Source: Maribacter dokdonensis DSW-8
Lineage (GTDB): Bacteria > Bacteroidota > Bacteroidia > Flavobacteriales > Flavobacteriaceae
NCBI RefSeq assembly: GCF_001447995.1
Contig: NZ_LDPE01000002.1
Span: 1-64,000, forward strand
Direction of reading: 5' to 3'
Length of the DNA stretch: 64,000 bases
Below are positions 1 to 12,552 of the stretch, in pieces; position 1 is the stretch's first letter; each line of letters opens with the position of its first letter. The position numbers and the translations under genes were made by a program. The notes beneath the pieces are model-generated. The model worked only from the letters and a program-made list of their open reading frames with translations, was not told the DNA's origin and searched no databases.

Positions 1-2546
1 TCCGCATTGGTGAATGTTTCACCTTCGCAAATGTTCAATGTTCCATCGCCTCCGGCATTTGGTTGAGCTTGCTCTACAACGGTTACGATGCTTTCATCAT
101 CTACTGTACATGGAGCTGTCGCCGCTACCGTGTACGTATGCGTGCTATCACCATTGTCGGTCCATGTTCCACCGGTATCGGGTGAACCTGTCAACTGTGC
201 GAACAAGTTCGCATTGGTGAATGTTTCGCCTTGGCAAATATTCAATGTTCCATCGATTCCTGCATTTGGTTGCGCTTGCTCTACAACGGTTACGATACTT
301 TCATCGTCTACTGCACATGGAGCAGTCGCCGCTACCGTGTACGTATGCGTGCTATCACCATTGTCGGTCCATGTTCCACCGGTATCGGGTGAACCAGTTA
401 ATTGTGCGAACAAGTCTGCATTGGTGAATGTTTCGCCTTCACAAATATTCAATGTACCATCGATTCCTGCATTTGGCTGTGCCTGCTCGGTTACGGTTAC
501 GATACTTTCATCATCTACTGTACAAGGTGATGTTGCTGATACTGTATACGTATGTGTTCCATTGCCATTATCAACCCAAGTTCCACCTGTATCTGGATTG
601 CCAGTCAGTTGCGCGAACAAATCATTATTATCAAAAGTATCGCCTACACAAATATTCAGTGTACCATCGATTCCTGCATTTGGTTGTGCCTGCTCGGTTA
701 CGGTTACAATACTTTCATCGTCTACAGTACATGGAACTGTCGCTACCACTGTGTACGTATGTGTTCCATTGCCATTGTCGGTCCACGTTCCACCAGTATC
801 GGGTGAACCAGTTAATTGTGCGAACAAGTCAGCATTGGTGAATGTTGCTCCTTCACAAATATTCAATGTTCCACCGCCTCCGGCATTTGGTTGCGCTTGC
901 TCTACAATGGTTACGATACTTTCATCATCTACTGTACAAGGTGATGTTGCTGATACTGTATACGTATGGGTACCATCTCCATTATCAACCCAAGTTCCAC
1001 CTGTATCTGGATTGCCAGTCAGTTGCGCGAACAAATCATTACTATCAAAAGTATCGCCTACACAAATATTCAGTGTACCATCGATTCCAGCATATGGTTG
1101 TGCTTGTTCTACAACGGTTACGATACTTTCATCATCTATTGTACAGGGTGATGTCGCTGCCACAGTATACGTATGCGTGCCATCGTTATTGTCCACCCAA
1201 GTTCCTCCAGTGTCTGGATTTCCCGTTAACTGTGCAAAAAGGTCTGCGTTGGTGAATGTCTCGCCTTCACAAATGTTCAATGTTCCGTCGATTCCCGCAT
1301 TTGGTTGCGCCTGCTCTACAACGGTTACGATACTTTCATCATCTACTGCACATGGAGCTGTCGCTGCTACTGTATACGTGTGAGTTCCGTCGCCATTGTC
1401 CGTCCACGTTCCACCGGTATCCGGGGAACCGGTCAACTGTGCGAACAAGTCTGCATTGGTGAATGTTTCGCCTTCACAAATGTTCAATGTTCCATCGATT
1501 CCTGCATTTGGTTGTGCCTGCTCGGTTACGGTTACGATACTTTCATCATCGGCTGTACATGGAGCTGTCGCTGATACTGTATACGTATGCGTGCCATCAC
1601 CATTGTCAATCCATGTTCCGCCGGTATCGGGTGAACCGGTCAGTTGTGCGAACAAGTCCGCATTGGTGAATGTTTCACCTTCGCAAATATTCAATGTGCC
1701 ATCACCCCCGGCATTTGGTTGTGCCTGCTCGGTTACGGTTACGATGCTTTCGTCATCTATTGTACAGGGTGATGTCGCTGCTACGGTATACGTATGAGTA
1801 CCATTGCCATTGTCGACCCATGTTCCGCCCGTATCCGGGGAACCGGTCAGTTGCGCGAACAAGTCTGCATTGGTGAATGTTTCGCCTTCGCAAATATTCA
1901 ATGTTCCATCGATTCCTGCATTTGGCTGTGCCTGCTCGGTTACGGTTACGATGCTTTCATCGTCTACAGTACATGGAGCAGTCGCTGCCACAGTGTACGT
2001 ATGCGTGCCATTACCGTTGTCGACCCATGTTCCGCCCGTATCTGGATTACCTGTAAGCTGACCAAATAGATCATCATTGTCAAAAGTTGCTCCTTGACAG
2101 ATATTCAATGTTCCATCACCTCCGGCATTTGGTTGAGCTTGCTCTACAACGTTTACGATACTTTCATCATCTACAGCACATGGAGCAGTCGCTGGCACTG
2201 TATACGTGTGGGTACCATCGCCATTATCGGTCCACGTTCCGCCGGTATCCGGGGAACCGGTCAATTGTGCGAACAGATCAGCATTCGAAAATGATTCACC
2301 CTGACAAATGTTTAATGTGCCATCACCTCCGGCATTTGGTGGCTCATGCTCAATTACTGTTACAATACTAGTAGCATTAACCGTACAAGGTGCAACAGCA
2401 GTTAAAGTATAGGTAAATGTATCATCAAAATTATTAGTCCAGGTTCCCCCGGTATCCGGAGCACCTGTTAAAGACGCAAAAAGATCTGCATTCTCAAAAG
2501 AATCCCCTAAACAAATGTTCAGGATCCCGTCGATACCAGCATTTGG
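1..2546 (-). repeat. 12 complete 207-bp coding repeats plus a partial unit
   Basis: The codons for Pro-Asn-Ala recur exactly every 207 bases (on the + strand gcatttgg at 55, 262, 469, 676, 883, 1090, 1297, 1504, 1711, 1918, 2125, 2332 and 2539), with no indel. Complete units span 63-2546 and a partial one runs off the window at 1-62. Each unit encodes PNAG-DGTLNIC-GE, DLFAQLTG, PDTGGTW, DNGDGTHTYTV, APCTVDDESIVTV and EQAQ. Two unit types exist, one with TNADLF and one with DNNDLF. Segments 428-841 and 842-1255 form a 414-bp higher-order duplication. The first unit (nearest the N-terminus) is the most divergent, the inner ones nearly identical, as expected from homogenisation. Confidence 0.97.
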
Positions 2547-3986
2547 ACAAGTATACACTGTAATATTAACTGTCGCGTATTGTGTATAACCCCTTGCATC
2601 TGTTATTCCGTAAATAAATGAGTCGGCACCTATAAAGTCCGTACTTGGTGTATAAGAGAAGTAATCATCTTGAGGATCGGTAGCTGAACCGTTTTCGTTT
2701 AAGGAAACACTACCATTGGTGGGGGTACTGACAATAAATATAGCTCCTGAATTAGGACCATTACCTCCAAAATCATCATTATTGGTTACTAAAATATCAA
2801 CTGAATTATTCTTTTCTACCGTAGCGGCATCATTTAAAGGAACAGGAAAAAAACTATCTGTAGTATCATTAAGTAAATTACCATCTGTATCATCACCATC
2901 ATCTGAAATGTCATCTGTATCATCTGGACCGTATGGACTATCGGCAAAAACACTTACCTGATTGATTACTCCTCCTTCATTAATTTCATTTGTAGTCAAT
3001 ACATGGCCAGCAGTATAAGTCGCCACTTCATTTGGCAAAAGAGTTCCTTCTAAAGAACCCATTGTAGAAGATAAGAAATTTGGCGGGGTACTTAATGCTA
3101 TACTATTTCCACTAGCATCTTTAAAAGTATCGGTTACATCAACATTCGTAACTTTTACGTTACCGGTATTTTCAATTTTTATAGTGTAATCCACTGAATC
3201 TCCAGCTTCTACAGGAGAACTAAAGTTATTTATTAAAGTTTTGGTAACTTCAATCTCAGGTTCTGCAATAATTAAGTTAGAAAGTACAAACTCCACTTCC
3301 TCGTTTAAACCTAAAAGACTACCAGCGAGGTTAACGTCCATATTAATGGATTGAACAGCTTCATCCATTTTCATTGTTCCTCCTCCTGTTCCTGTAGTGT
3401 TCCCATTACCACATTCACCACCATTACCACTAATTAGCGAACCTGTATCTACATTAAATTGGGTGTTAGTAAATTCAAAAATAGGACCATTACGACTAAC
3501 ATTTGACCATGTTCCATTAGTTGATGTAAAAACACCCGTACTAGAACCAGAAAGCAAAGGAAAAGGCAAAATACCATAGGTACCCACCCTATCCACATGA
3601 AGTAATGGACTTACAATATATACCGGATCACCGGTAGCCGCATCAAAAAAACGGAACTGCAAAGTACCAAAACGTAAAATAGAGTTTAACGAAACTTCTA
3701 TTGAACGACTTCCAAATACATCAGGAGTAGGGTCTCCATAAGTAGCATCTGACGTACAACCCATAGTATCTTCACCTAAGATAGATACTCCTAATGAAGG
3801 TACTGCCTCTACCCTTACCGCACCATCTGAACTTAAAGATTCCCAAGTGACGGATAAGGGTTGTTGGGTCCAAGTAGTTGTCTGCTGTGAGTATAATGGT
3901 TGTATTCCCTGTATCAAAAGAAAAAGAACGGCTAGTCTTTTCCAAAAAGAATTAAGGTTAGAATATGAAGTAATAAGTTTGGTCAT
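1..3986 (-). CDS. Secreted repeat-rich adhesin-like protein, C-terminus beyond the window
   Basis: The reading frame is open from an ATG at 3986 to the window edge (1328 codons seen, 3' part missing). Residues 1-34 form a signal peptide ending near LYSQ. About 35-235 is an unrecognised N-terminal domain. About 240-370 is a DUF11-type domain (EIEVTKTL, IENTGNVKVTNVDVTD) followed by an Asp-rich linker. About 380-475 resembles a cadherin/Ig-like module (NDAATVEKN ... DSFIYGITD). From residue 481 on, the protein is a tandem array of 69-residue repeats, each with two cysteines (LNIC and APC). In Flavobacteriaceae such proteins usually end in a type IX secretion sorting domain and are displayed on or released from the cell surface; that end is not visible here. 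The role as adhesin or matrix protein is inferred from architecture only. It is followed by no visible partner gene. Confidence 0.85.
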   Translation of the reverse strand, partial: MTKLITSYSNLNSFWKRLAVLFLLIQGIQPLYSQQTTTWTQQPLSVTWESLSSDGAVRVEAVPSLGVSILGEDTMGCTSDATYGDPTPDVFGSRSIEVSLNSILRFGTLQFRFFDAATGDPVYIVSPLLHVDRVGTYGILPFPLLSGSSTGVFTSTNGTWSNVSRNGPIFEFTNTQFNVDTGSLISGNGGECGNGNTTGTGGGTMKMDEAVQSINMDVNLAGSLLGLNEEVEFVLSNLIIAEPEIEVTKTLINNFSSPVEAGDSVDYTIKIENTGNVKVTNVDVTDTFKDASGNSIALSTPPNFLSSTMGSLEGTLLPNEVATYTAGHVLTTNEINEGGVINQVSVFADSPYGPDDTDDISDDGDDTDGNLLNDTTDSFFPVPLNDAATVEKNNSVDILVTNNDDFGGNGPNSGAIFIVSTPTNGSVSLNENGSATDPQDDYFSYTPSTDFIGADSFIYGITDARGYTQYATVNITVYTCPNAGIDGILNICLGDSFENADLFASLTGAPDTGGTWTNNFDDTFTYTLTAVAPCTVNATSIVTVIEHEPPNAGGDGTLNICQGESFSNADLFAQLTGSPDTGGTWTDNGDGTHTYTVPATAPCAVDDESIVNVVEQAQPNAGGDGTLNICQGATFDNDDLFGQLTGNPDTGGTWVDNGNGTHTYTVAATAPCTVDDESIVTVTEQAQPNAGIDGTLNICEGETFTNADLFAQLTGSPDTGGTWVDNGNGTHTYTVAATSPCTIDDESIVTVTEQAQPNAGGDGTLNICEGETFTNADLFAQLTGSPDTGGTWIDNGDGTHTYTVSATAPCTADDESIVTVTEQAQPNAGIDGTLNICEGETFTNADLFAQLTGSPDTGGTWTDNGDGTHTYTVAATAPCAVDDESIVTVVEQAQPNAGIDGTLNICEGETFTNADLFAQLTGNPDTGGTWVDNNDGTHTYTVAATSPCTIDDESIVTVVEQAQPYAGIDGTLNICVGDTFDSNDLFAQLTGNPDTGGTWVDNGDGTHTYTVSATSPCTVDDESIVTIVEQAQPNAGGGGTLNICEGATFTNADLFAQLTGSPDTGGTWTDNGNGTHTYTVVATVPCTVDDESIVTVTEQAQPNAGIDGTLNICVGDTFDNNDLFAQLTGNPDTGGTWVDNGNGTHTYTVSATSPCTVDDESIVTVTEQAQPNAGIDGTLNICEGETFTNADLFAQLTGSPDTGGTWTDNGDSTHTYTVAATAPCAVDDESIVTVVEQAQPNAGIDGTLNICQGETFTNANLFAQLTGSPDTGGTWTDNGDSTHTYTVAATAPCTVDDESIVTVVEQAQPNAGGDGTLNICEGETFTNA

Positions 3987-4324: not shown

Positions 4325-5449
4325 TCACTTTAATAGACTTGCAAAATTAAAGGCGGCATTTACAAGATTGTCCCTACTCTGCTCCATAGCTTGATTTAAA
4401 GTAGAAATGCCTCTTACAATCGATGCCACATAATTTAACCCGAATTTTTGTTGTTGTGCAACGCTAATACTTACCGAGCCACAGAGTGCGGCAACGGGTA
4501 TATTCTTGGATTTGGCAGATTTTACTACCCCATCTATGGTCTTGCCAGAAAGCGTTTGCTCATCTAACTGACCTTCGCCGGTAATGATCCAATCTGCTCC
4601 TTCAATAGCATTATCAAAATCTGCCAATTCCTTGACCAAATTATTCCCAGAAATTAATTCTCCGTTCAGAAAAATAAGGGCGCCACCACCAACACCACCT
4701 GCTGCACCGGAGCCACTTACTTTCTGTAAATCGATTTCATAACGATTCTTGATAATTTCTGCAAAGTTGCACAAACCCTGATTTAGAAATATAATCTCAT
4801 TTTCAGAAGCACCTTTTTGTGCCCCATAAATATAAGCGGCACCTTGTAGCCCATAAAAAGGATTGGTGACATCACATGCGACTTTTACTTTTACCCCATC
4901 TAACCTATGATGCTTGTTGGAATCGTCTATAGTTTTCACCTTTGAAAGATGTTTCCCTATCGGGGATAACTCCAGTCCTTTTTCATCCAAAAAGCGAAAA
5001 CCTAACGCATTTGCCATGCCCATACCACCGTCATTGGTAGCACTACCGCCAATACCTAAAATAATTTCTGTTGCTCCTTTTTCAAGCGCATCATAAATTA
5101 ATTCGCCTGTTCCAGATGTTGTCGTTTCCATGCAGTCAAACTCATCTACATTCAACAATTTCAATCCTGATGCTTCAGCCATCTCTATGTAGGCAATCTT
5201 TGTTTCATCAGAATATAAATAAGAAGCATTTATAGGTCTAAAAAGAGGATCGTTTACAGTAATGGTTACCGTTTCTCCTTTTATATAATGTTTAGCGACT
5301 TCCATGGTACCATCACCACCATCTGCTAAAGGCTTTTTCAAAATTTCGGCATCCTTGAACACCATTAGGAGTCCTTCCTCTACGGCATCACAAAATTCGA
5401 AACCGGTTAGTGAGCCTTTAAACTTATCTGGTGCTATTACAAATTTCAT
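4325..5449 (-). CDS. glxK: Glycerate kinase, GlxK/GarK family
   Basis: Phosphorylates D-glycerate with ATP to 2- or 3-phosphoglycerate in the cytoplasm, feeding lower glycolysis. The 374-residue length matches the family. Family motifs are visible: MKFVIAPDKFKGSL at the N-terminus, ADGGDGTME near residue 43, GIGGSATNDGGMGMA near 136, the Gly-rich GSGAAGGVGGG near 246, and GEGQLDEQTLSGK near 293. It is the last gene of the run hydrolase - micro-ORF - symporter - kinase, with only 10 bases separating it from the symporter. Its presence beside a GH63 glycerate-glycoside hydrolase explains where the glycerate would come from. Exact product regiochemistry cannot be told from sequence. Confidence 0.93.
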   Translation of the reverse strand: MKFVIAPDKFKGSLTGFEFCDAVEEGLLMVFKDAEILKKPLADGGDGTMEVAKHYIKGETVTITVNDPLFRPINASYLYSDETKIAYIEMAEASGLKLLNVDEFDCMETTTSGTGELIYDALEKGATEIILGIGGSATNDGGMGMANALGFRFLDEKGLELSPIGKHLSKVKTIDDSNKHHRLDGVKVKVACDVTNPFYGLQGAAYIYGAQKGASENEIIFLNQGLCNFAEIIKNRYEIDLQKVSGSGAAGGVGGGALIFLNGELISGNNLVKELADFDNAIEGADWIITGEGQLDEQTLSGKTIDGVVKSAKSKNIPVAALCGSVSISVAQQQKFGLNYVASIVRGISTLNQAMEQSRDNLVNAAFNFASLLK

Positions 5450-5459
5450 TGCTATAAGA

Positions 5460-7064
5460 TTAATTCAAAATATTTGGTAATGCAACACTAAAAGCAACTA
5501 TTGCTACAAAGTATGCCAACAATATTACCACTTCTTTTTTACCGGAATAATATTCAACCTTTAACCCTTCATTTACCCTTCTTTTAACCGTGTAGCTTAC
5601 CCCAATCGCAACCAATACAGTAACTATACACCCCAGTGCATTCCACCAGAACCAAAAGATCTGAGGCACATATAGCCATAGGTAAACATTGAACAATACC
5701 CCAACAACTATACCGATATTGGCACCAAGAGCATGAGTTTTCTTGGTAAGTATTGCCAAAATAAAAGCTGCCAAAATTGGACCATAGAAAACAGAACTTA
5801 TTTTATTGATGACTTCTATGACCGTGCCTTCTATATTGCCTGCAAAAAATGCAAAAAACAAACAGACCAGACCCCAAAAAATAGACAGTAACTTTGAATA
5901 GGTCATGTATTTTTTATCTGGCATATTAGGGTTGAATCTTTTTACGAAGTCTTCCATAGTTACGGCAGATAAGGAGTTTACCGTAGAACTCAAGGTAGAC
6001 ATAGCTGCTGACATGATAGCTACGATCAAAATACCGATTACCCCATTTGGCAAATACTTAATTATAAAGACCGGCACCATTAAATCTGCCTTTTTCCCTT
6101 GTAATGAAGTTATATTGGCTTGGTACACGGTTTCCATCTGTTCTTGAAAACTAACATCTTGCAACAGCAACGTACCCAACACAAGCCCCATAATGCAATA
6201 GGTCAATGTAAACGGAAAACGCAATAATCCGTTTGCCATCATCAGTTTTTTAAGGTTAGACATGCTACTTGAAGATAACAACCGTTGCGATTGGGTTTGA
6301 TCAGTACCGTAATAAGAAGCGTACAAAAAGAATCCACCAATGACCATGGGCCAAAATCCAAATTCATCATTACCATCTGCATTGTTAAAACCCCATTTGT
6401 TAAAATCTACCGCTGTAATTCTATCAGTATCCACATGGGTAAGAAAATTATCTATTCCACCAAGCTCACTAAAACCAAAGTACAAGCATATAATAATGCC
6501 AATAAAAAGGATACTCATTTGAATGACATCGCCCCATATAACTGCCTTCATACCACCTTGAAAAGAGTAGACCATGGTAATGAGTCCGATAATTAAAATG
6601 GAAATCCAAAAATCCAATCCAATAGTGGCCTGTAAAATTAAGGCCATAGTATATACCATAACCCCTGTAGCTACAGACCTGCTTATTTGAAAAACGAAAC
6701 TTATTAATAAACGCGATGAAGAATCAAATCTTTTCTCTAAATATTCATATACGCTAACAATACCTGATTTATACAGTGTTGGTAATACTGCAATAAGCAA
6801 AAATGCCATTGCCAATGGTACACCAAACTCATACGTTAGCCACTGCATACCCCCACCATCTTTTAAACCGACGAAAGCAGGAGCCGAGATAAAACTTATG
6901 GCAGACAATTGGGTTGCCATTGCCGATAAGCTTAATGGCAGCCATGATGTTTTACGACCACCCAAAAAGTAATCGCCACCAGAGTTGTTTTCCTTGAACA
7001 TAAAGCCCAAACCTAAAAACCCTGCTAAATAAACAACAATAATGATATAGTCAACGTAGTTCAT
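5460..7064 (-). CDS. Sodium:solute symporter (SSS/SSF family)
   Basis: A 534-residue inner-membrane protein with about 13-14 hydrophobic helices, starting with an N-terminal helix (DYIIIVVYLAGFLGLGF) and the typical GGRKTSWLPLSLSAMATQLSA segment that lines the substrate/Na+ path in SSS transporters. The family couples uptake of sugars, amino acids or organic acids to sodium. Its position between the GH63 hydrolase and glycerate kinase suggests the intact glycoside as substrate, since the hydrolase has no signal peptide. The start at 7064 follows TAAGG directly after the stop of the micro-ORF. Substrate is an inference; the family assignment is firm. Confidence 0.92.
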   Translation of the reverse strand: MNYVDYIIIVVYLAGFLGLGFMFKENNSGGDYFLGGRKTSWLPLSLSAMATQLSAISFISAPAFVGLKDGGGMQWLTYEFGVPLAMAFLLIAVLPTLYKSGIVSVYEYLEKRFDSSSRLLISFVFQISRSVATGVMVYTMALILQATIGLDFWISILIIGLITMVYSFQGGMKAVIWGDVIQMSILFIGIIICLYFGFSELGGIDNFLTHVDTDRITAVDFNKWGFNNADGNDEFGFWPMVIGGFFLYASYYGTDQTQSQRLLSSSSMSNLKKLMMANGLLRFPFTLTYCIMGLVLGTLLLQDVSFQEQMETVYQANITSLQGKKADLMVPVFIIKYLPNGVIGILIVAIMSAAMSTLSSTVNSLSAVTMEDFVKRFNPNMPDKKYMTYSKLLSIFWGLVCLFFAFFAGNIEGTVIEVINKISSVFYGPILAAFILAILTKKTHALGANIGIVVGVLFNVYLWLYVPQIFWFWWNALGCIVTVLVAIGVSYTVKRRVNEGLKVEYYSGKKEVVILLAYFVAIVAFSVALPNILN

Positions 7065-7067
7065 ACC

Positions 7068-7154
7068 TTAGTTTCTATTTTTTTTGATTAAAAAGCCAAC
7101 CATAACAATACCGAATATGTAGAATACAATTAAAAAGTAATCAATATAATTCAT
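7068..7154 (-). CDS. 28-aa single-helix micro-ORF resembling the symporter N-terminus
   Basis: An ATG at 7154 opens a 28-codon frame ending in TAA at 7068-7070, three bases before the symporter ATG. The peptide (MNYIDYFLIVFYIFGIVM, then VGFLIKKNRN) is one hydrophobic helix with a basic tail. It aligns without gaps to the first 28 residues of the symporter, with 13 identities including MNY-DY, IV, Y, G, GF, K and N. The DNA of the two stretches has diverged much more than the protein, which suggests selection at the protein level. It could be a small accessory subunit, a translational-coupling leader, or a duplication remnant. No functional assignment is possible from sequence. Confidence 0.6.
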   Translation of the reverse strand: MNYIDYFLIVFYIFGIVMVGFLIKKNRN

Positions 7155-7166
7155 AACACATCAGTT

Positions 7167-8480
7167 TTAATCGGTATTCACCATATCAATATATAAAGCG
7201 GCGCTCCAAGAGAAATTATTCCCGCCGTATCCCGTCTGATTTTTATCTCCGGTATCTCGTCTACAGTCAAAATATTCGTAAAAATCGTACTGCTGGATCA
7301 GTTCTAAACTGTCTATTTTAATCCGTTCTGCTAGATCTGTGTAACCGTTACTTCTTAGCCCACGAAAAAGCATCCAGTTCATATTGATCCACACAGGACC
7401 TCTCCAATATTTTCTAGGATTAAAACGATCATCAGTAGGATCAAACGATGCACATAGGTATTTATCTTCTCCACCGAACTTCTCCATCATTGTTTTCACT
7501 AAAACCTGAGCTCTTTCTTCAGATGGAATATGTGCGAACAAAGGTGAAAAAGACGATGAGGTAATGTGGCGAATAGGTTTCTCGTTTCTTAAATCATAAT
7601 GTACATATGCCCCTAATACCGCATCGAACAACTTATCATTGAAACTTTTAATACTTTTTAATTGCCATTGAGATAGAGTTGCAATTTTATCTTCATGACC
7701 CCCGATCAATTCATATAATTCAATTAACGCCTGATTAGATTTTATAAGCATTGCATTGAACAATGGATCTTGAACCAAAAAGGGGGAAAACTCGGCAATT
7801 TTAGCATCATTATAATTGTGCTGTTTGGCAATATTGATAAGGTGCAGATAATGATCATACTCCCTTTTGGTAGGGCGCTGGGAAGCATCTACATGCGTAG
7901 TATCTTTTCTAACAAATGTATATTCCGGCGGATCCATCATTTTCCAGATATCATCCCATACAGGGGAGTTGTCCGTACCAGATTCCCAGTTGTGATAAAT
8001 GTAGACCAACCCTTCATCTTTTGGGTCTCTATTTTCGTAGAAATACACGTGATTGTTAAAAACCTTATCGATCTCTTCTTTGATGAAGTGCAACATATCA
8101 TCCTTATCTTCTGCAATACGATACATTTCTTGTAACACAAAACCGGAAACCGGTGGTTGTGTCATACCAGTAGACCTATATTTTTTTGATGATAAAGGAT
8201 GCAATTCAGATTGGTGAAAATCTGCCCCAGGGAAATAGGAATCGTTCTCCGTATGAAAAACGATATGCGGTATAAATCCGTTTTCCCACTGTGCATCAAG
8301 CAAGGTTCTCATTTCGGTTTTGGCTTTTTCTACGTCATAATGAGCAAAACCGATAGCTATAAAACCTGAATCCCACTTCCATTGAAAAGGATACAGCCCT
8401 GCACTAGGTATTGTAAATCCACCTTCTTGAAAATTTGCATCCAAGATTGCAATAGCCTTCTTATATAATTCTTTCTTCAT
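7167..8480 (-). CDS. GH63-type mannosylglycerate/glucosylglycerate hydrolase
   Basis: Predicted to hydrolyse an alpha-glycoside of D-glycerate to hexose plus glycerate. The 437-residue length and layout match the compact bacterial GH63 enzymes (mannosylglycerate hydrolase of Thermus, glucosylglycerate hydrolase of mycobacteria), an (alpha/alpha)6 barrel without the extra domains of eukaryotic glucosidase I. Visible motifs: QWKWDSGF at 33-40, HNWESGTDNSPVWD at 163-176 (D170 a candidate general acid), RKYWRGPVWINMNW at 356-369, YEYF at 401-404 (E402 a candidate base) and GYGGNNFSWSAALY near the C-terminus. There is no signal peptide, so it acts in the cytoplasm. It is followed after 12 bases by the micro-ORF and the symporter. 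Trehalase-like or other alpha-glucosidase activity is the main alternative. Confidence 0.78.
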   Translation of the reverse strand: MKKELYKKAIAILDANFQEGGFTIPSAGLYPFQWKWDSGFIAIGFAHYDVEKAKTEMRTLLDAQWENGFIPHIVFHTENDSYFPGADFHQSELHPLSSKKYRSTGMTQPPVSGFVLQEMYRIAEDKDDMLHFIKEEIDKVFNNHVYFYENRDPKDEGLVYIYHNWESGTDNSPVWDDIWKMMDPPEYTFVRKDTTHVDASQRPTKREYDHYLHLINIAKQHNYNDAKIAEFSPFLVQDPLFNAMLIKSNQALIELYELIGGHEDKIATLSQWQLKSIKSFNDKLFDAVLGAYVHYDLRNEKPIRHITSSSFSPLFAHIPSEERAQVLVKTMMEKFGGEDKYLCASFDPTDDRFNPRKYWRGPVWINMNWMLFRGLRSNGYTDLAERIKIDSLELIQQYDFYEYFDCRRDTGDKNQTGYGGNNFSWSAALYIDMVNTD

Positions 8481-8545
8481 ATTATCTTGTAAATCACCTT
8501 GGGACTAGCCCACTAGGCTTTGAATTAAAAACACAATTATTATGT

Positions 8546-8559
8546 TGACGCAAGCGTCA
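8546..8559. promoter_or_regulatory. Perfect palindrome upstream of the hydrolase gene
   Basis: TGACGC-AA-GCGTCA is a perfect dyad lying 66-79 bases before the hydrolase ATG (8480), downstream of the receptor terminator. Its size fits a dimeric regulator site. It differs from the LacI-type palindrome at 11445, so it may bind a different regulator or be a diverged site for the same one. Confidence 0.4.
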
Positions 8560-8585
8560 GAGCATATAAATCTGGATTATCGAGT

Positions 8586-8622
8586 AAAAAACACATTGGC
8601 AACTCCTATTATCGCCAATGTG
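8586..8622 (-). terminator. Intrinsic terminator/attenuator between receptor and hydrolase genes
   Basis: On the minus strand CACATTGGC (8622-8614) pairs perfectly with GCCAATGTG (8600-8592) over a 13-base loop and is followed by a run of T (8591-8586). It lies 36 bases after the TonB receptor stop and before the co-directional hydrolase, so it can separate or attenuate the two transcripts. Confidence 0.75.
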
Positions 8623-8657
8623 CTCATCAATTAAACTTAAACTAACAACACAAATTT

Positions 8658-11333
8658 TTAGAAATTGAAAGTAGCCGTTACAAACAATCTTCTAGGTAAA
8701 ATTGGTCTACCTACAAAGAATTGTGATTCTGTTTGACCTGCTGAACCTGCTCTTGGATTCCCCTCCGTAATTCCGTCACTATCAAATAAATTAAAGACCG
8801 ATACCCCCAAACGAACCGAATTATTGTTATCCTCTTTTGAGAATGTGTAACCGGCACCTAACCTACCAATGGTTATGGCATCTAATTCTATATTATTGGT
8901 ATCATCGGTGAATTTTGACCCTGTGTAGTTGAAACCGAAATTGGCATCAAAAGCAGTATTGTCATAATACAGTCCCAATCCGCCCAACAAGTTTGGCTGT
9001 CTGGCCAATTCATTACCAACGTTAGCTTCTGTAGATGTACCGTTTACCAAATCAAAATCCGTATTTTTTGTAATCTCATGGTTTTGGTAAGTTGCATTAC
9101 CACGTAGATTTAGATATTGTGCAAGGCTATAATCCCAAGTTGCCTCTATACCTATAGTTCTTGTGTTTTGCTCAGCTCTTGTTTCATCTATTAATTGACC
9201 CCCAACAATTGCCTGCCTAATGGAAATACGATCTTTAAGACCTACGTAATACCCTGCCACCGAACCAGAGAATTTTTGGTTTCCGAATTTGGCACCAGCT
9301 TCAAACTGAATAATGTTCTCAGCATCGTACGGACTTTCAGAAATACCTGCTACCGGAGCAAAACCTCTTAGTTGAGGAAAAAAGTATCCTTTAGAAAAGT
9401 TTGCGTATAGATTGGTAGTTTCGGTTAACTCATAAAGACCTGCAAGTGATAGCGCCCAAGCATTTGCATTTACTTCTGTTCTTAAGAACGTACCATCTGC
9501 AGTTTGCACGTCACTTAACTCAGCTGTAAGTTCCGGATCGGCATATACCGTTTCGCTCATAATACCACCACGGCTATTGATACCATCTGTATGTTCCCAT
9601 CTAAAACCAACATCAAAACGCCATCTATCTAAAATCATCTCATCGGTAATATATAATGCTAATCTATTTTGAGAAAGATAGTTATTGGCAGTTTGACCAA
9701 TACGGTTATATAAACCGCCTTGAGAATACACTACATTATTTCCACTGGCATCGGTATAATTTAAGTTTACCAATTGAGGGTTATTATTGAACTCTGTCAA
9801 CACTCTATATTGATAATTTACATCTTCTGCTTCTGTACGGGCTAAATAAGAACCTACGGTTATGTTATGGTCACCACCATTTGCTGTTTCAATAGATTTA
9901 GTAAGGTTGATCTCACCAGAATAATCTGTCATTGGACGTAAACGATCCACATGCAAATTATCTATTACCAAGTCGTTACCGTTAATTTGAGCACCTGACC
10001 CACTTTGGTAAGCAGCAGTATATCCTAAATTACCAGGAGCGATACTTTCTACATAATTATCTAATGTTATCGGGTTTCCGTTTGTTCCATTTCCTCCTAC
10101 ATACAAGGCAAAGTTGTGCTTGTAATTTGCATATTTAATTTTGGAGGTCAATTTAAGGTCGTCTTCAAATCTGTAATTGAAATCACCCATAAGGTAACCA
10201 CCAGAAGTAGCAACACCATCTGAAATAGGACTATTATAGGTTCCACCTGGTGTGTTGAACGAGGTATTTGCCAAATCACCGGATAACAATTGCTCAACCG
10301 GGTCACCATCATTACCGTTTATACGTTCTCTACTACCACCACTTAATGGAATTGGAAGGTAAAATTGAGCTTTGTCGTCAATAAACTGTCCGCTTAAGGT
10401 AAAAGAACCATTATCGAATTTCTTTTTAATATTACCTCTAAACTGAACACCTTTTGTTGGTAGACCTACATCAATAGGACCTCTATCATGACGAACAAAA
10501 CCAGTAAAAGCGTAATACGTGTTAGAATCTTCACCACCTAGTTGACCACCGGAATAGAAGTCCGTTTTTATTCTACCTTGGTTGGCCACTTCAATATTAA
10601 TAATGTTACCAGGGTTTGTATCGCCCGTTTTACTTGTGTAGTTAATAATACCGGCAACAGAACCTGCACCATATAATACAGCTGCACCACCACGAACAAA
10701 TTCAACACCTTTAAAACCTATATCTGGTCTTGCATAGACATCATGCGCAGAAGAATTTAGTCCGAAAGAACTAATTAAAGGCATACCGTCATATTGTAGC
10801 GGGTTAAAAACATACTGACCACCGGAAGGCAAACCTCTAACGAATATATTACTCGCCGTTTCACCACCACCACCTTCAGCGGTAATACCTGGGACACTTC
10901 TAAGAATATCTGCCTGACTGTTGGCAGATAGCTTAGTTATTTCTTTCATTTTTACAGAACTGATAGATAAAGGAGCCTGTTTTTGAGAACGAAATGTACT
11001 TGATGCGGTTAAAACTACCTCATCTAATAACTGACCACCTTCTTGAAGCACGACATTTACCGTTTGTGTAGTACCATTTAAGGTCAAAGATTTATCTACC
11101 GAAGTAAAACCGATATATGATATACGTAATATTTGTTCACCTGTAAGGTCTGTTGAAAAAGAAAAATTACCATCAAAATCTGATGTTGTACCCGAAGTGC
11201 TACCTACTATTAAAATATTTGCACCGGGAATAGGGTCTCCTAAATTGTCCGTTACGGTTCCAGAAATATCAGTCTGTGCAAAGGAGCTTGCACTGATAAG
11301 AAGTCCGATTACCGCAAAAATAATTTTCTTCAT
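8658..11333 (-). CDS. TonB-dependent outer-membrane receptor without SusD partner
   Basis: An 891-residue receptor expected to import a substrate across the outer membrane using TonB energy. Residues 1-19 are a signal peptide ending SSFAQ. About 20-105 form a CarboxypepD-reg-like domain (DISGTVTDNLGDPIPGANI). About 110-230 are the plug (SNIFVRGLPSGGQY; RGGAAVLYGAGSVAGIINY). The rest is the beta-barrel, ending in aromatic ATFNF. There is no adjacent SusD gene and it lacks SusC length, so it resembles receptors for small solutes rather than polysaccharides. It is divergent from the LacI regulator across a tandem operator, and its downstream co-directional genes encode hydrolase, symporter and kinase. 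A weak 6-bp dyad (CGATTT at 11360-11365, AAATCG at 11374-11379) lies in its leader. Confidence 0.93.
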   Translation of the reverse strand: MKKIIFAVIGLLISASSFAQTDISGTVTDNLGDPIPGANILIVGSTSGTTSDFDGNFSFSTDLTGEQILRISYIGFTSVDKSLTLNGTTQTVNVVLQEGGQLLDEVVLTASSTFRSQKQAPLSISSVKMKEITKLSANSQADILRSVPGITAEGGGGETASNIFVRGLPSGGQYVFNPLQYDGMPLISSFGLNSSAHDVYARPDIGFKGVEFVRGGAAVLYGAGSVAGIINYTSKTGDTNPGNIINIEVANQGRIKTDFYSGGQLGGEDSNTYYAFTGFVRHDRGPIDVGLPTKGVQFRGNIKKKFDNGSFTLSGQFIDDKAQFYLPIPLSGGSRERINGNDGDPVEQLLSGDLANTSFNTPGGTYNSPISDGVATSGGYLMGDFNYRFEDDLKLTSKIKYANYKHNFALYVGGNGTNGNPITLDNYVESIAPGNLGYTAAYQSGSGAQINGNDLVIDNLHVDRLRPMTDYSGEINLTKSIETANGGDHNITVGSYLARTEAEDVNYQYRVLTEFNNNPQLVNLNYTDASGNNVVYSQGGLYNRIGQTANNYLSQNRLALYITDEMILDRWRFDVGFRWEHTDGINSRGGIMSETVYADPELTAELSDVQTADGTFLRTEVNANAWALSLAGLYELTETTNLYANFSKGYFFPQLRGFAPVAGISESPYDAENIIQFEAGAKFGNQKFSGSVAGYYVGLKDRISIRQAIVGGQLIDETRAEQNTRTIGIEATWDYSLAQYLNLRGNATYQNHEITKNTDFDLVNGTSTEANVGNELARQPNLLGGLGLYYDNTAFDANFGFNYTGSKFTDDTNNIELDAITIGRLGAGYTFSKEDNNNSVRLGVSVFNLFDSDGITEGNPRAGSAGQTESQFFVGRPILPRRLFVTATFNF

Positions 11334-11444
11334 AATGTTTGAGTTTTTTTAAGTTGAGTCGATTTAAATTATCAAATCGTTGATTATGAAGCCAAATTAT
11401 ATGAATACAGCATTCTATTAACTAAAAATTAACGAATTACCAAT

Positions 11445-11468
11445 GCAAACGTTTGCGCAAACGTTTGC
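11445..11468. promoter_or_regulatory. Two abutting LacI-type operators
   Basis: The perfect 12-bp palindrome GCAAACGTTTGC occurs twice with no spacer (11445-11456 and 11457-11468). Its central CG and the flanking AAAC/GTTT are typical for LacI-family regulators. It sits between the divergent receptor (ATG at 11333) and LacI gene (ATG at 11527), 58 bases before the latter. It is very likely the site of the LacI protein and controls both directions. Confidence 0.88.
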
Positions 11469-11526
11469 AATTTAATTTGTAATATTGTTATTCTTTGAAT
11501 TCCATATAATTTACTCATTTTCAATC

Positions 11527-12552
11527 ATGAGCAAAAAAAGAAATACCACATTAAAAGAACTTTCTAAAGAATTGAGTTTATCAATTTCAACAGTTTCAAG
11601 GGCACTGAACGACCACCCGGATATTAGTCTAGCAACCAAAGAGAGAGTCAAAAAACTAGCCAAACAAATGAATTATGTACCTAATTTATTTGCCAGAGGC
11701 TTCCGTTCAAGAGAAACACACATACTAGGTGTTATTGTACCCAACATCTCGCACCTATTTACTTCTACCATTATAAAAGGAATTATTGAGGAAGCTGAAT
11801 TAAGGGGGTACAGAGTAATTATCTCAGAATCTAATAATGACGACGCCAAACAAGTAGAAATGTTAAACACCATGACCCAGTTTGGAGTTGACGGAGTGCT
11901 AATGTCATTGGCCAGAAAGACAAAAGATGTAGAAGAAGTATTAAAGGTTTTAAATAGAATACCTATTGTATTATTTGACAAGGTATCAAGTAAAATACCT
12001 TGCACCCAAGTTGTTATCAATGAAGAAGAAGCTGCTTTTAACGCTGTTGAACATTTAATAGAACTTGGCAAGAAACGAATAGCCATTATTAAAGAAACCG
12101 AAAACTCATACAACTCAGAAAAGAGATTTGCCGGCTATTTGCGTGCTTTAAACCAATATAAAATACCCGTACGGGACAAGTTGATTTTAAGCACAGAAGA
12201 TATTTCATTAGGCAATGGAAGGCGGTTGGCCAATATTCTCATTAGTATGAAAAAACGTCCAGATGCCATTTTTGCCATTACCGATAATGCTGCAATTGGT
12301 GCTATAAAGGCATTACATAAATTTAAGATCAAAATACCTGATGAAATTGCAGTGGTAGGTTTTAGCAACTCTATCAACTCAACCATCATCAGTCCGGCTT
12401 TGACCACTGTTGACCAACCTGGCGACAAGATCGGTAGAACAGCAGTTCGGTTTCTAATTCAAGAAATAGAAAGTCAACCCAACGAAGTACATACCAAAAC
12501 TGTTGAGATAAAGACCAGTTTGATCGTTAGGGATTCCTCACTAAAAGCTTAA
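11527..12552 (+). CDS. LacI-family transcriptional regulator
   Basis: A DNA-binding repressor or activator with an N-terminal helix-turn-helix and hinge (TLKELSKELSLSISTVSRAL, then RVKKLAKQMNYVPN) and a periplasmic-binding-protein-like sensor domain from about residue 60 (LGVIVPNISHLFTSTIIKGI) to the end (VGFSNS, LTTVDQPGDKIGRTA). The ATG at 11527 gives MSKKRNTTLKEL, the normal LacI N-terminus; an upstream in-frame ATG at 11485 would add 14 hydrophobic residues that do not fit. It is divergent from the TonB receptor with the tandem GCAAACGTTTGC operator between them. The likely effector is the glycoside or its hexose/glycerate product. Its stop lies 14 bases from the stop of the convergent carboxylase gene. 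Confidence 0.93.
   Translation: MSKKRNTTLKELSKELSLSISTVSRALNDHPDISLATKERVKKLAKQMNYVPNLFARGFRSRETHILGVIVPNISHLFTSTIIKGIIEEAELRGYRVIISESNNDDAKQVEMLNTMTQFGVDGVLMSLARKTKDVEEVLKVLNRIPIVLFDKVSSKIPCTQVVINEEEAAFNAVEHLIELGKKRIAIIKETENSYNSEKRFAGYLRALNQYKIPVRDKLILSTEDISLGNGRRLANILISMKKRPDAIFAITDNAAIGAIKALHKFKIKIPDEIAVVGFSNSINSTIISPALTTVDQPGDKIGRTAVRFLIQEIESQPNEVHTKTVEIKTSLIVRDSSLKA

What the first reader, a model, noticed from the sequence alone, without database searches (positions are those of the whole stretch)
4325..12552. Candidate locus for uptake and catabolism of digeneaside (mannosylglycerate) or glucosylglycerate
Seen: a GH63 hydrolase of the compact mannosylglycerate/glucosylglycerate type, an SSS symporter, a glycerate kinase, a TonB receptor and a LacI regulator, tightly ordered around one tandem operator. 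Known: this GH63 subgroup releases glycerate from its alpha-mannosides or alpha-glucosides, and glycerate kinase brings glycerate into glycolysis. Digeneaside is an abundant solute of red algae. Inferred: the five genes form a complete route from outer membrane to glycolysis for a compatible solute, a mode of nutrition for marine Bacteroidota distinct from SusCD polysaccharide loci.
Basis: partly seen in the sequence, partly recalled or inferred. Interest (0 to 1): 0.78.

Follow-up and report, generated by a model that had tools for sequence, protein, structure and literature searches.

The report
Bacterial locus for eating algal mannosylglycerate
A marine bacterium carries a compact set of genes that looks built to import and break down mannosylglycerate, a salt-protecting compound of red algae; the idea that such bacteria do this is already in print, and this work adds comparative evidence that the sugar part is mannose.

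Summary
In detail: glycerate kinase, SSS symporter, 437-aa GH63 (PF22422), non-SusC TonB receptor and LacI regulator, with a 26-bp tandem operator whose core has no other site in the genome within 3 mismatches. The order holds in 56 of 65 relatives with enough flank. All 19 active-site positions compared match Thermus mannosylglycerate hydrolase, in the window and in 80 of 80 relatives. The enzyme alone cannot separate mannosyl- from glucosylglycerate; neighbours favour mannose: a mannose-6-phosphate isomerase-family gene directly follows glycerate kinase in 10 of 73 loci (several lineages, not ten events) and was found nowhere else in those neighbourhoods, and in three genomes of one distant genus GH63 lies beside mannosyl-3-phosphoglycerate synthase. 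The host lacks that synthase, so the substrate is probably foreign. Best reading: uptake and cytoplasmic hydrolysis of mannosylglycerate (digeneaside). One relative points towards glucosylglycerate. Digeneaside degradation genes were already reported for Zobellia and Maribacter, so the idea is not new. Additions: conserved operator and internal terminator, an optional acetyltransferase gene, a Maribacter-only 28-codon ORF. No step has been assayed.

The parts
4325..5449 (-). glycerate kinase (PF02595, TIGR00045), last gene of the cassette; a second PF02595 gene lies elsewhere in the genome
5460..7064 (-). SSS (solute:sodium symporter family) inner-membrane transporter
7068..7154 (-). 28-codon ORF (MNYIDYFLIVFYIFGIVMVGFLIKKNRN) ending 3 bases before the symporter start, resembling the symporter's own N-terminus; among the loci examined seen in the window and 9 other Maribacter loci only
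   Evidence: mean dN 0.157, mean dS 1.148, ratio 0.14 over 36 pairs of 9 sequences, L004 left out; the symporter's own first codons give 0.02
7167..8480 (-). GH63 glycoside hydrolase of the mannosylglycerate/glucosylglycerate hydrolase type (PF22422), predicted cytoplasmic
8586..8622 (-). intrinsic-terminator-like hairpin and T-run after the TonB receptor gene; a hairpin is found at this place in most relatives
8546..8559 (.). short inverted repeat TGACGC-AA-GCGTCA upstream of GH63; similar sequence only in part of Maribacter, role unknown
8658..11333 (-). TonB-dependent receptor with N-terminal carboxypeptidase-D-like domain, signal peptide by eye, no SusD partner
11444..11469 (.). tandem LacI-type operator TGCAAACGTTTGCGCAAACGTTTGCA between receptor and regulator
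11527..12552 (+). LacI-family regulator, divergently transcribed

Best explanation
A LacI-controlled cassette for growth on exogenous mannosylglycerate (digeneaside, 2-O-alpha-D-mannosyl-D-glycerate). Inferred steps: the TonB receptor takes the anionic solute across the outer membrane; the SSS symporter takes it across the inner membrane with sodium; the cytoplasmic GH63 enzyme hydrolyses it with inversion to mannose and D-glycerate (acid Asp170, base Glu402); glycerate kinase makes 2- or 3-phosphoglycerate for glycolysis; mannose is phosphorylated and isomerised by enzymes encoded elsewhere in this genome. LacI bound at the single tandem operator represses the receptor transcript and probably itself; the terminator after the receptor gene lowers downstream expression relative to the receptor. 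Shown here: gene families, active-site residues, conserved order, operator and terminator-like hairpin, linkage to mannose genes in relatives. Inferred: substrate, direction of transport, repression, attenuation. About 0.93 that the substrate is a glycerate alpha-glycoside and about 0.8, given that, that mannosylglycerate is the main natural one.
For: GH63: 41% identity to Thermus MgH and 34% to M. hassiacum GgH (chain 6g3n) over 407 aligned columns; E 1.4e-89 to 2z07/4wva. Of 19 catalytic or substrate-contacting positions taken from PMC6608630, all 19 match Thermus MgH in the window and in 80 of 80 related loci. Position 434 is Phe in all of these, whereas the paper describes Gln434 and chains such as 5ohc show Gln (6g3n shows Phe). 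MhGgH hydrolyses GG almost ten times more efficiently than MG, while Thermus and Selaginella MgH use both about equally. Synteny: five genes in order in 56 of 65 loci; an SSS match downstream in 77 of 77 (in L066 with a broken frame), glycerate kinase in 73 of 76. Mannose linkage: ManA (TIGR00218 above cut-off in 4 of 4) or PF01050-family genes within 170 bases after the glycerate kinase match in 10 of 73 loci, with no other hit at E 1e-8 in 1.54 Mb. MG linkage: GH63 next to MpgS (TIGR02460, 523-524 bits, cut-off 351.2) in 3 of 13 phylum-wide loci, all of one genus; the following gene in L126 is MpgP (TIGR02461 above cut-off). Foreign substrate: no MpgS match in the host, with Thermus composti found as positive control; no GpgS match over cut-off.
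Against: No assay exists. The best NCBIfam hit is glucosylglycerate hydrolase, though far under its cut-off (331.7 against 550 bits). The isomerase-family genes are in 10 of 73 loci, not in this window, and are shared by related genomes, so they are perhaps three to five gains, not ten; in the two Lutibacter loci (L038, L047) nucleotide-sugar genes (RmlA- and RmlC-like by eye) follow about 0.6 kb further on, so there the isomerase might serve them. The 171-aa PF01050 proteins match only the isomerase C-terminal domain and may not be isomerases. The three MpgS-linked loci are one genus, and 10 of 13 phylum-wide loci show no MpgS beside GH63 in the listed genes (by eye). One Eudoraea locus (L068) carries a GH13 sucrose-phosphorylase-like gene and a glycosyltransferase resembling mannosylglucosylglycerate synthase (419.9 of 640 bits), which points to glucosylglycerate or a mixed glycoside there. 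Some relatives are Flavobacterium and Frigoriflavimonas species, for which red-algal digeneaside is not an obvious food. Nine of 65 loci lack the receptor; in a divergent subclade GH63-SSS-kinase stands without a similar receptor or LacI nearby. Single-step mannosyl- or glucosylglycerate synthases were not searched in the host.
Confidence: 0.75

Rival explanations
1. The same cassette serves glucosylglycerate, released by picocyanobacteria and other bacteria; mannosylglycerate is a side substrate.
For: Characterised relatives cleave both. Glucosylglycerate is one of two major solutes of Prochlorococcus NATL2A (PMC11631117, passages). L068 has a phosphorylase-like GH13 and an MggS-like glycosyltransferase. 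Hosts include Flavobacterium species as well as marine genera.
Against: Mannose-6-phosphate isomerase-family genes follow the kinase in 10 of 73 loci and were found only there; MpgS beside GH63 in three genomes of one distant genus; Phe rather than Gln at the position where M. hassiacum GgH is described with Gln. The L068 inserts were seen in 1 of 80 loci.
Confidence: 0.18
2. The locus recycles an internally made compatible solute, as proposed for MgH/GgH in Thermus and mycobacteria; the transporters recover leaked solute.
For: MhGgH is proposed to mobilise internal stores (PMC6608630, discussion read); the three MpgS-linked relatives fit this role.
Against: No MpgS match in the host and no GpgS match over cut-off (best 66.2 of 262 bits; single-step synthases not searched); LacI control and a TonB receptor fit an external nutrient.
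Confidence: 0.04
3. The GH63 enzyme acts on another small alpha-glycoside (trehalose, kojibiose, a glucosylated acid), and glycerate kinase is there for another reason.
For: Sources name some relatives trehalase or amylo-alpha-1,6-glucosidase; weak Pfam match to trehalase. A MurQ-like gene beside the divergent subclade and GH97 in one locus are unexplained.
Against: Glycerate-contacting residues (Tyr36, Trp40, Tyr88, Arg216, Tyr222, Tyr375 of MhGgH) are invariant in 111 of 111 related rows, a few of them duplicates of one species; MhGgH does not cleave glucosylglycerol or glucosylglycolate; kinase adjacency in 73 of 76 loci.
Confidence: 0.03

Closest known systems
Predicted digeneaside degradation genes of Zobellia galactanivorans and Maribacter dokdonensis 62-1 (PMC8072126, citing Barbeyron et al. 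2016)
   Same: Same bacterial group and same proposed substrate; homologs of the five-gene cassette occur in four Zobellia species.
   Different: I saw passages of PMC8072126 only; the 2016 paper is not held, so I cannot say which genes it named, and Z. galactanivorans itself was not among the loci.
GH63 mannosylglycerate hydrolase of Thermus thermophilus (2z07, 4wva-c)
   Same: 41% identity, all 19 active-site positions compared are identical.
   Different: That enzyme belongs to a mannosylglycerate-making organism (recalled); here it sits with uptake genes in a host without an MpgS match.
Mycolicibacterium hassiacum glucosylglycerate hydrolase (5ohc, 6q5t)
   Same: 34% identity (to chain 6g3n), same catalytic pair.
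   Different: Gln434 of the paper and of chains such as 5ohc is Phe here; NCBIfam equivalog cut-off not reached.
E. coli MngR-MngA-MngB mannosylglycerate system (recalled, not tested)
   Same: Import plus cytoplasmic hydrolysis of mannosylglycerate.
   Different: Uses a PTS and a GH38 enzyme acting on the phosphorylated substrate, under a GntR-type regulator; none of these is among the five proteins.
SusC/SusD polysaccharide utilization loci
   Same: TonB receptor with an N-terminal carboxypeptidase-D-like domain and sugar enzymes in one cluster.
   Different: Receptor is far below the SusC/RagA cut-off (103.9 of 368.25 bits) and no SusD-sized unassigned ORF lies in the cassette.

Membership tests
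GH63 mannosylglycerate/glucosylglycerate hydrolase subgroup | PF22422 MGH1-like domain over the whole length | tested here: met
   302.7 bits, profile 1-356 of 356
GH63 mannosylglycerate/glucosylglycerate hydrolase subgroup | Catalytic acid Asp182 and base Glu419 (MhGgH numbering) and glycerate-contacting residues | tested here: met
   Asp170, Glu402 and the other positions in the window; identical in 80 of 80 close relatives
GH63 mannosylglycerate/glucosylglycerate hydrolase subgroup | Hydrolysis of mannosyl- or glucosylglycerate | not testable with these tools
   needs an enzyme assay
NCBIfam glucosylglycerate hydrolase equivalog (NF047898) | Score above 550 bits | tested here: not met
   331.7 bits
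Glycerate kinase family PF02595 / TIGR00045 | Score above cut-off over full length | tested here: met
   450.3 (cut-off 23.3) and 426.2 (cut-off 168.45) bits
SSS symporters (TIGR00813) | Score above cut-off | tested here: met
   259.3 bits, cut-off 184
SusCD locus | SusC-type receptor above family cut-off | tested here: not met
   103.9 of 368.25 bits, N-terminal and plug region only
SusCD locus | SusD-like lipoprotein next to the receptor | tested here: not met
   by inspection of the ORF list: apart from the five genes only ORFs of 103-146 aa, antisense to them, between 4325 and 12552
MngAB-type system | PTS permease and GH38 mannosidase (features recalled) | tested here: not met
   none among the cassette's five proteins

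The most novel reading that the evidence does not exclude
This is a dedicated, widespread mannosylglycerate scavenging system of Flavobacteriaceae (GH63 in 43 of 299 genomes sampled) with its own non-Sus TonB receptor for a small charged solute. Its optional acetyltransferase gene, between GH63 and symporter in 21 Flavobacteriaceae loci and in a distant Bacteroidota family (L120), marks an unrecognised extra step such as acetylation of the solute or a product; and in Maribacter a 28-residue peptide derived from the symporter's first helix tunes that transporter.
Probability: 0.2. Interest if true: 0.55.

Novelty: new member of a known kind. Interest (0 to 1): 0.36.

Why it matters
If true, one conserved gene cassette marks which marine flavobacteria can live on a red-algal osmolyte rather than on cell-wall polysaccharides. 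It gives a genomic marker for that carbon flow and a test case for how a TonB receptor without SusD handles a small anionic sugar derivative. The comparative linkage to mannose genes also says which of two solutes to test first.

Tried and rejected
Enzyme sequence alone was tried as the way to separate mannosyl- from glucosylglycerate: it fails, because characterised relatives use both; only position 434 gives a hint, and one PDB chain of the mycobacterial enzyme (6g3n) shows Phe there too. A wider regulon was sought: no second tandem operator within 3 mismatches; half-sites were not searched. A second operator upstream of GH63 was considered (TGACGC-AA-GCGTCA): not seen outside part of Maribacter, so not claimed. 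The 28-codon ORF was first thought a conserved symporter subunit: among the loci examined it is Maribacter-only, and other Maribacter loci (L009-L011, L027, L028, L081) lack it; its dN/dS near 0.14 suggests coding but rests on 26 codons, related genomes and saturated dS, with one divergent copy (L004) left out, and the symporter's own N-terminus is far more constrained (0.02). A tree of 57 GH63 rows put the window inside one Flavobacteriaceae group; Thermus MgH joined three phylum rows, but treekit flagged long branches meeting, so no weight is put on it. Structure prediction and fold search were not run, since solved relatives at 34-41% identity cover the enzyme. L068 was dropped from the first residue count by a coordinate slip (80 of 81 rows with letters, the window among them) and included in the second.
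Full report
What is there. The window lies on contig C2 of a 4.43-Mb, 16-contig genome. The closest named relative for the GH63 protein is Maribacter huludaoensis (97%). Between 4325 and 12552 there are five genes: glycerate kinase, SSS symporter, GH63 hydrolase, TonB receptor (all minus strand) and a divergent LacI regulator.

Enzyme. The 437-aa protein fills the PF22422 profile and aligns over its length with Thermus mannosylglycerate hydrolase and M. hassiacum glucosylglycerate hydrolase. From PMC6608630 (outline and abstract, sections 3.1 and 4, and passages seen) I took 19 catalytic or substrate-contacting positions. All 19 match Thermus MgH in the window and in 80 of 80 related loci. Among 18 more divergent Flavobacteriaceae rows and 13 rows from across the phylum (some rows are the same species as a named locus, for example L100 and L079), the two catalytic residues and six main glycerate contacts never vary; three other positions (78, 89, 115) vary in some rows. 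The telling position is 434: Gln in the paper and in chains like 5ohc, Phe in Thermus, in chain 6g3n and in all 111 rows. By eye there is no signal peptide, so I infer that the substrate is imported whole.

Cassette. Of 80 loci fetched by protein similarity (the 80 best of 111), 65 have at least 5 kb before and 4.5 kb after GH63; 56 of these 65 hold all five genes in the same order and orientation. A symporter match follows in 77 of 77 loci with room for it (in L066 the frame is broken) and the kinase in 73 of 76. Nine of 65 lack the receptor and six of 65 lack LacI. In a sample of 299 genomes of the family, the own genome included, 43 carry the GH63 gene at E 1e-50; in 395 genomes of the phylum 19 do at E 1e-30.

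Control regions. The tandem operator is within 5 mismatches of the window's sequence in 61 of 67 loci; shuffled regions never came closer than 9 in 1340 trials. Its distance to the receptor start is 79-119 bases in the 59 such loci with a receptor. In this genome there is no second tandem site within 3 mismatches, so LacI looks local. A hairpin with a T-run follows the receptor gene in 58 of 66 loci by a folding rule of my own without a shuffled control. I infer that receptor transcripts outnumber those of the downstream genes.

Which sugar. Nothing in the window's own locus handles the sugar; a ManA-family gene lies on another contig (181.5 bits, cut-off 116.2). Relatives are more telling. 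Directly after glycerate kinase there is a class I mannose-6-phosphate isomerase gene in 4 loci (L038, L044, L047, L053; TIGR00218 above cut-off in 4 of 4) and a PF01050 mannose-6-phosphate isomerase-family gene in 6 (L032, L035, L036, L037, L059, L064; 4 of the 6 were scanned). A tblastn search of all 81 loci then held (1.54 Mb) with these proteins found no other place at E 1e-8. These ten loci are not ten events: they fall in a few related groups, and in the two Lutibacter loci RmlA- and RmlC-like genes lie about 0.6 kb beyond (by eye). A ROK sugar kinase follows in one locus, L014. In 3 of 13 phylum-wide loci (L126, L129, L131, one genus) GH63 lies beside mannosyl-3-phosphoglycerate synthase; the phosphatase follows, scanned in L126 only. 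These point to mannose, hence mannosylglycerate. Against it: L068, a Eudoraea MAG, has a GH13 phosphorylase-like gene and a glycosyltransferase of the mannosylglucosylglycerate-synthase family (below cut-off) inside the cassette, and the PF01050 proteins match a C-terminal domain only.

Origin of the substrate. The host has no match to mannosyl-3-phosphoglycerate synthase (the control genome Thermus composti was found) and only sub-cut-off glycosyltransferase matches for the glucosyl enzyme, a model that also rings below cut-off in most control genomes. Single-step synthases were not searched. With a TonB receptor and a LacI switch, an external nutrient is the better reading. Digeneaside of red algae is the obvious marine source (the finding's own statement and recalled).

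Prior work. In PMC8072126 a passage (further passages) says homologs of Zobellia genes for digeneaside degradation were found in Maribacter dokdonensis 62-1, citing Barbeyron et al. 2016, which is not held. PMC6298971 names digeneaside among further possible substrates (one passage). The listings of searches showed no title about an assay of this cassette; I saw titles and abstract beginnings only, searches listed 30 of 53,323 and 20 of 148 papers, and most subscription journals are not held, so this is no proof of absence. The finding is therefore filed as a new member of a predicted kind.

Open points. An acetyltransferase-like gene sits between GH63 and symporter in 21 loci (the L080 copy is PF13302) and in a distant relative, L120 (41% identity), but not in this window. 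A divergent subclade of 11 loci pairs GH63-symporter-kinase; the four of them whose genes were listed have a MurQ-like gene next to GH63 (confirmed for L090). Neither is explained.

Noticed in passing
window 7068-7154 (-); same place in L002-L008, L026, L080: 28-codon ORF resembling the N-terminus of the symporter that starts 3 bases later; Maribacter only among the loci examined, looks constrained (dN/dS about 0.14).
   Followed up: partly
L014, L016, L020, L021, L024, L028, L044, L046 and 13 more loci, between GH63 and SSS; L120 5380-5982: GNAT-like acetyltransferase gene as an optional but old part of the cassette; role unknown.
   Followed up: partly
L068 8652-13040: Eudoraea MAG with an MggS-like glycosyltransferase and a GH13 phosphorylase-like gene flanking GH63 inside the cassette.
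   Followed up: partly
L087, L090, L093, L096, divergent from GH63: MurQ-like (N-acetylmuramic acid 6-phosphate etherase) gene next to GH63-SSS-kinase in a divergent subclade without a similar receptor or LacI nearby; only L090 was scanned.
   Followed up: partly
L061 11269-13272: GH97 alpha-galactosidase-like gene inserted between GH63 and symporter in Wenyingzhuangia heitensis.
   Followed up: no
L058, L062, L073, L076, L077 between SSS and glycerate kinase: Peptidase S66 (LD-carboxypeptidase-like) gene inserted in five Allomuricauda/Flagellimonas-type loci; only L062 was scanned.
   Followed up: no
window 3-3986 (-): Start of a long protein with many near-identical repeats, running off the window; it makes spurious plus-strand ORFs.
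   Followed up: no
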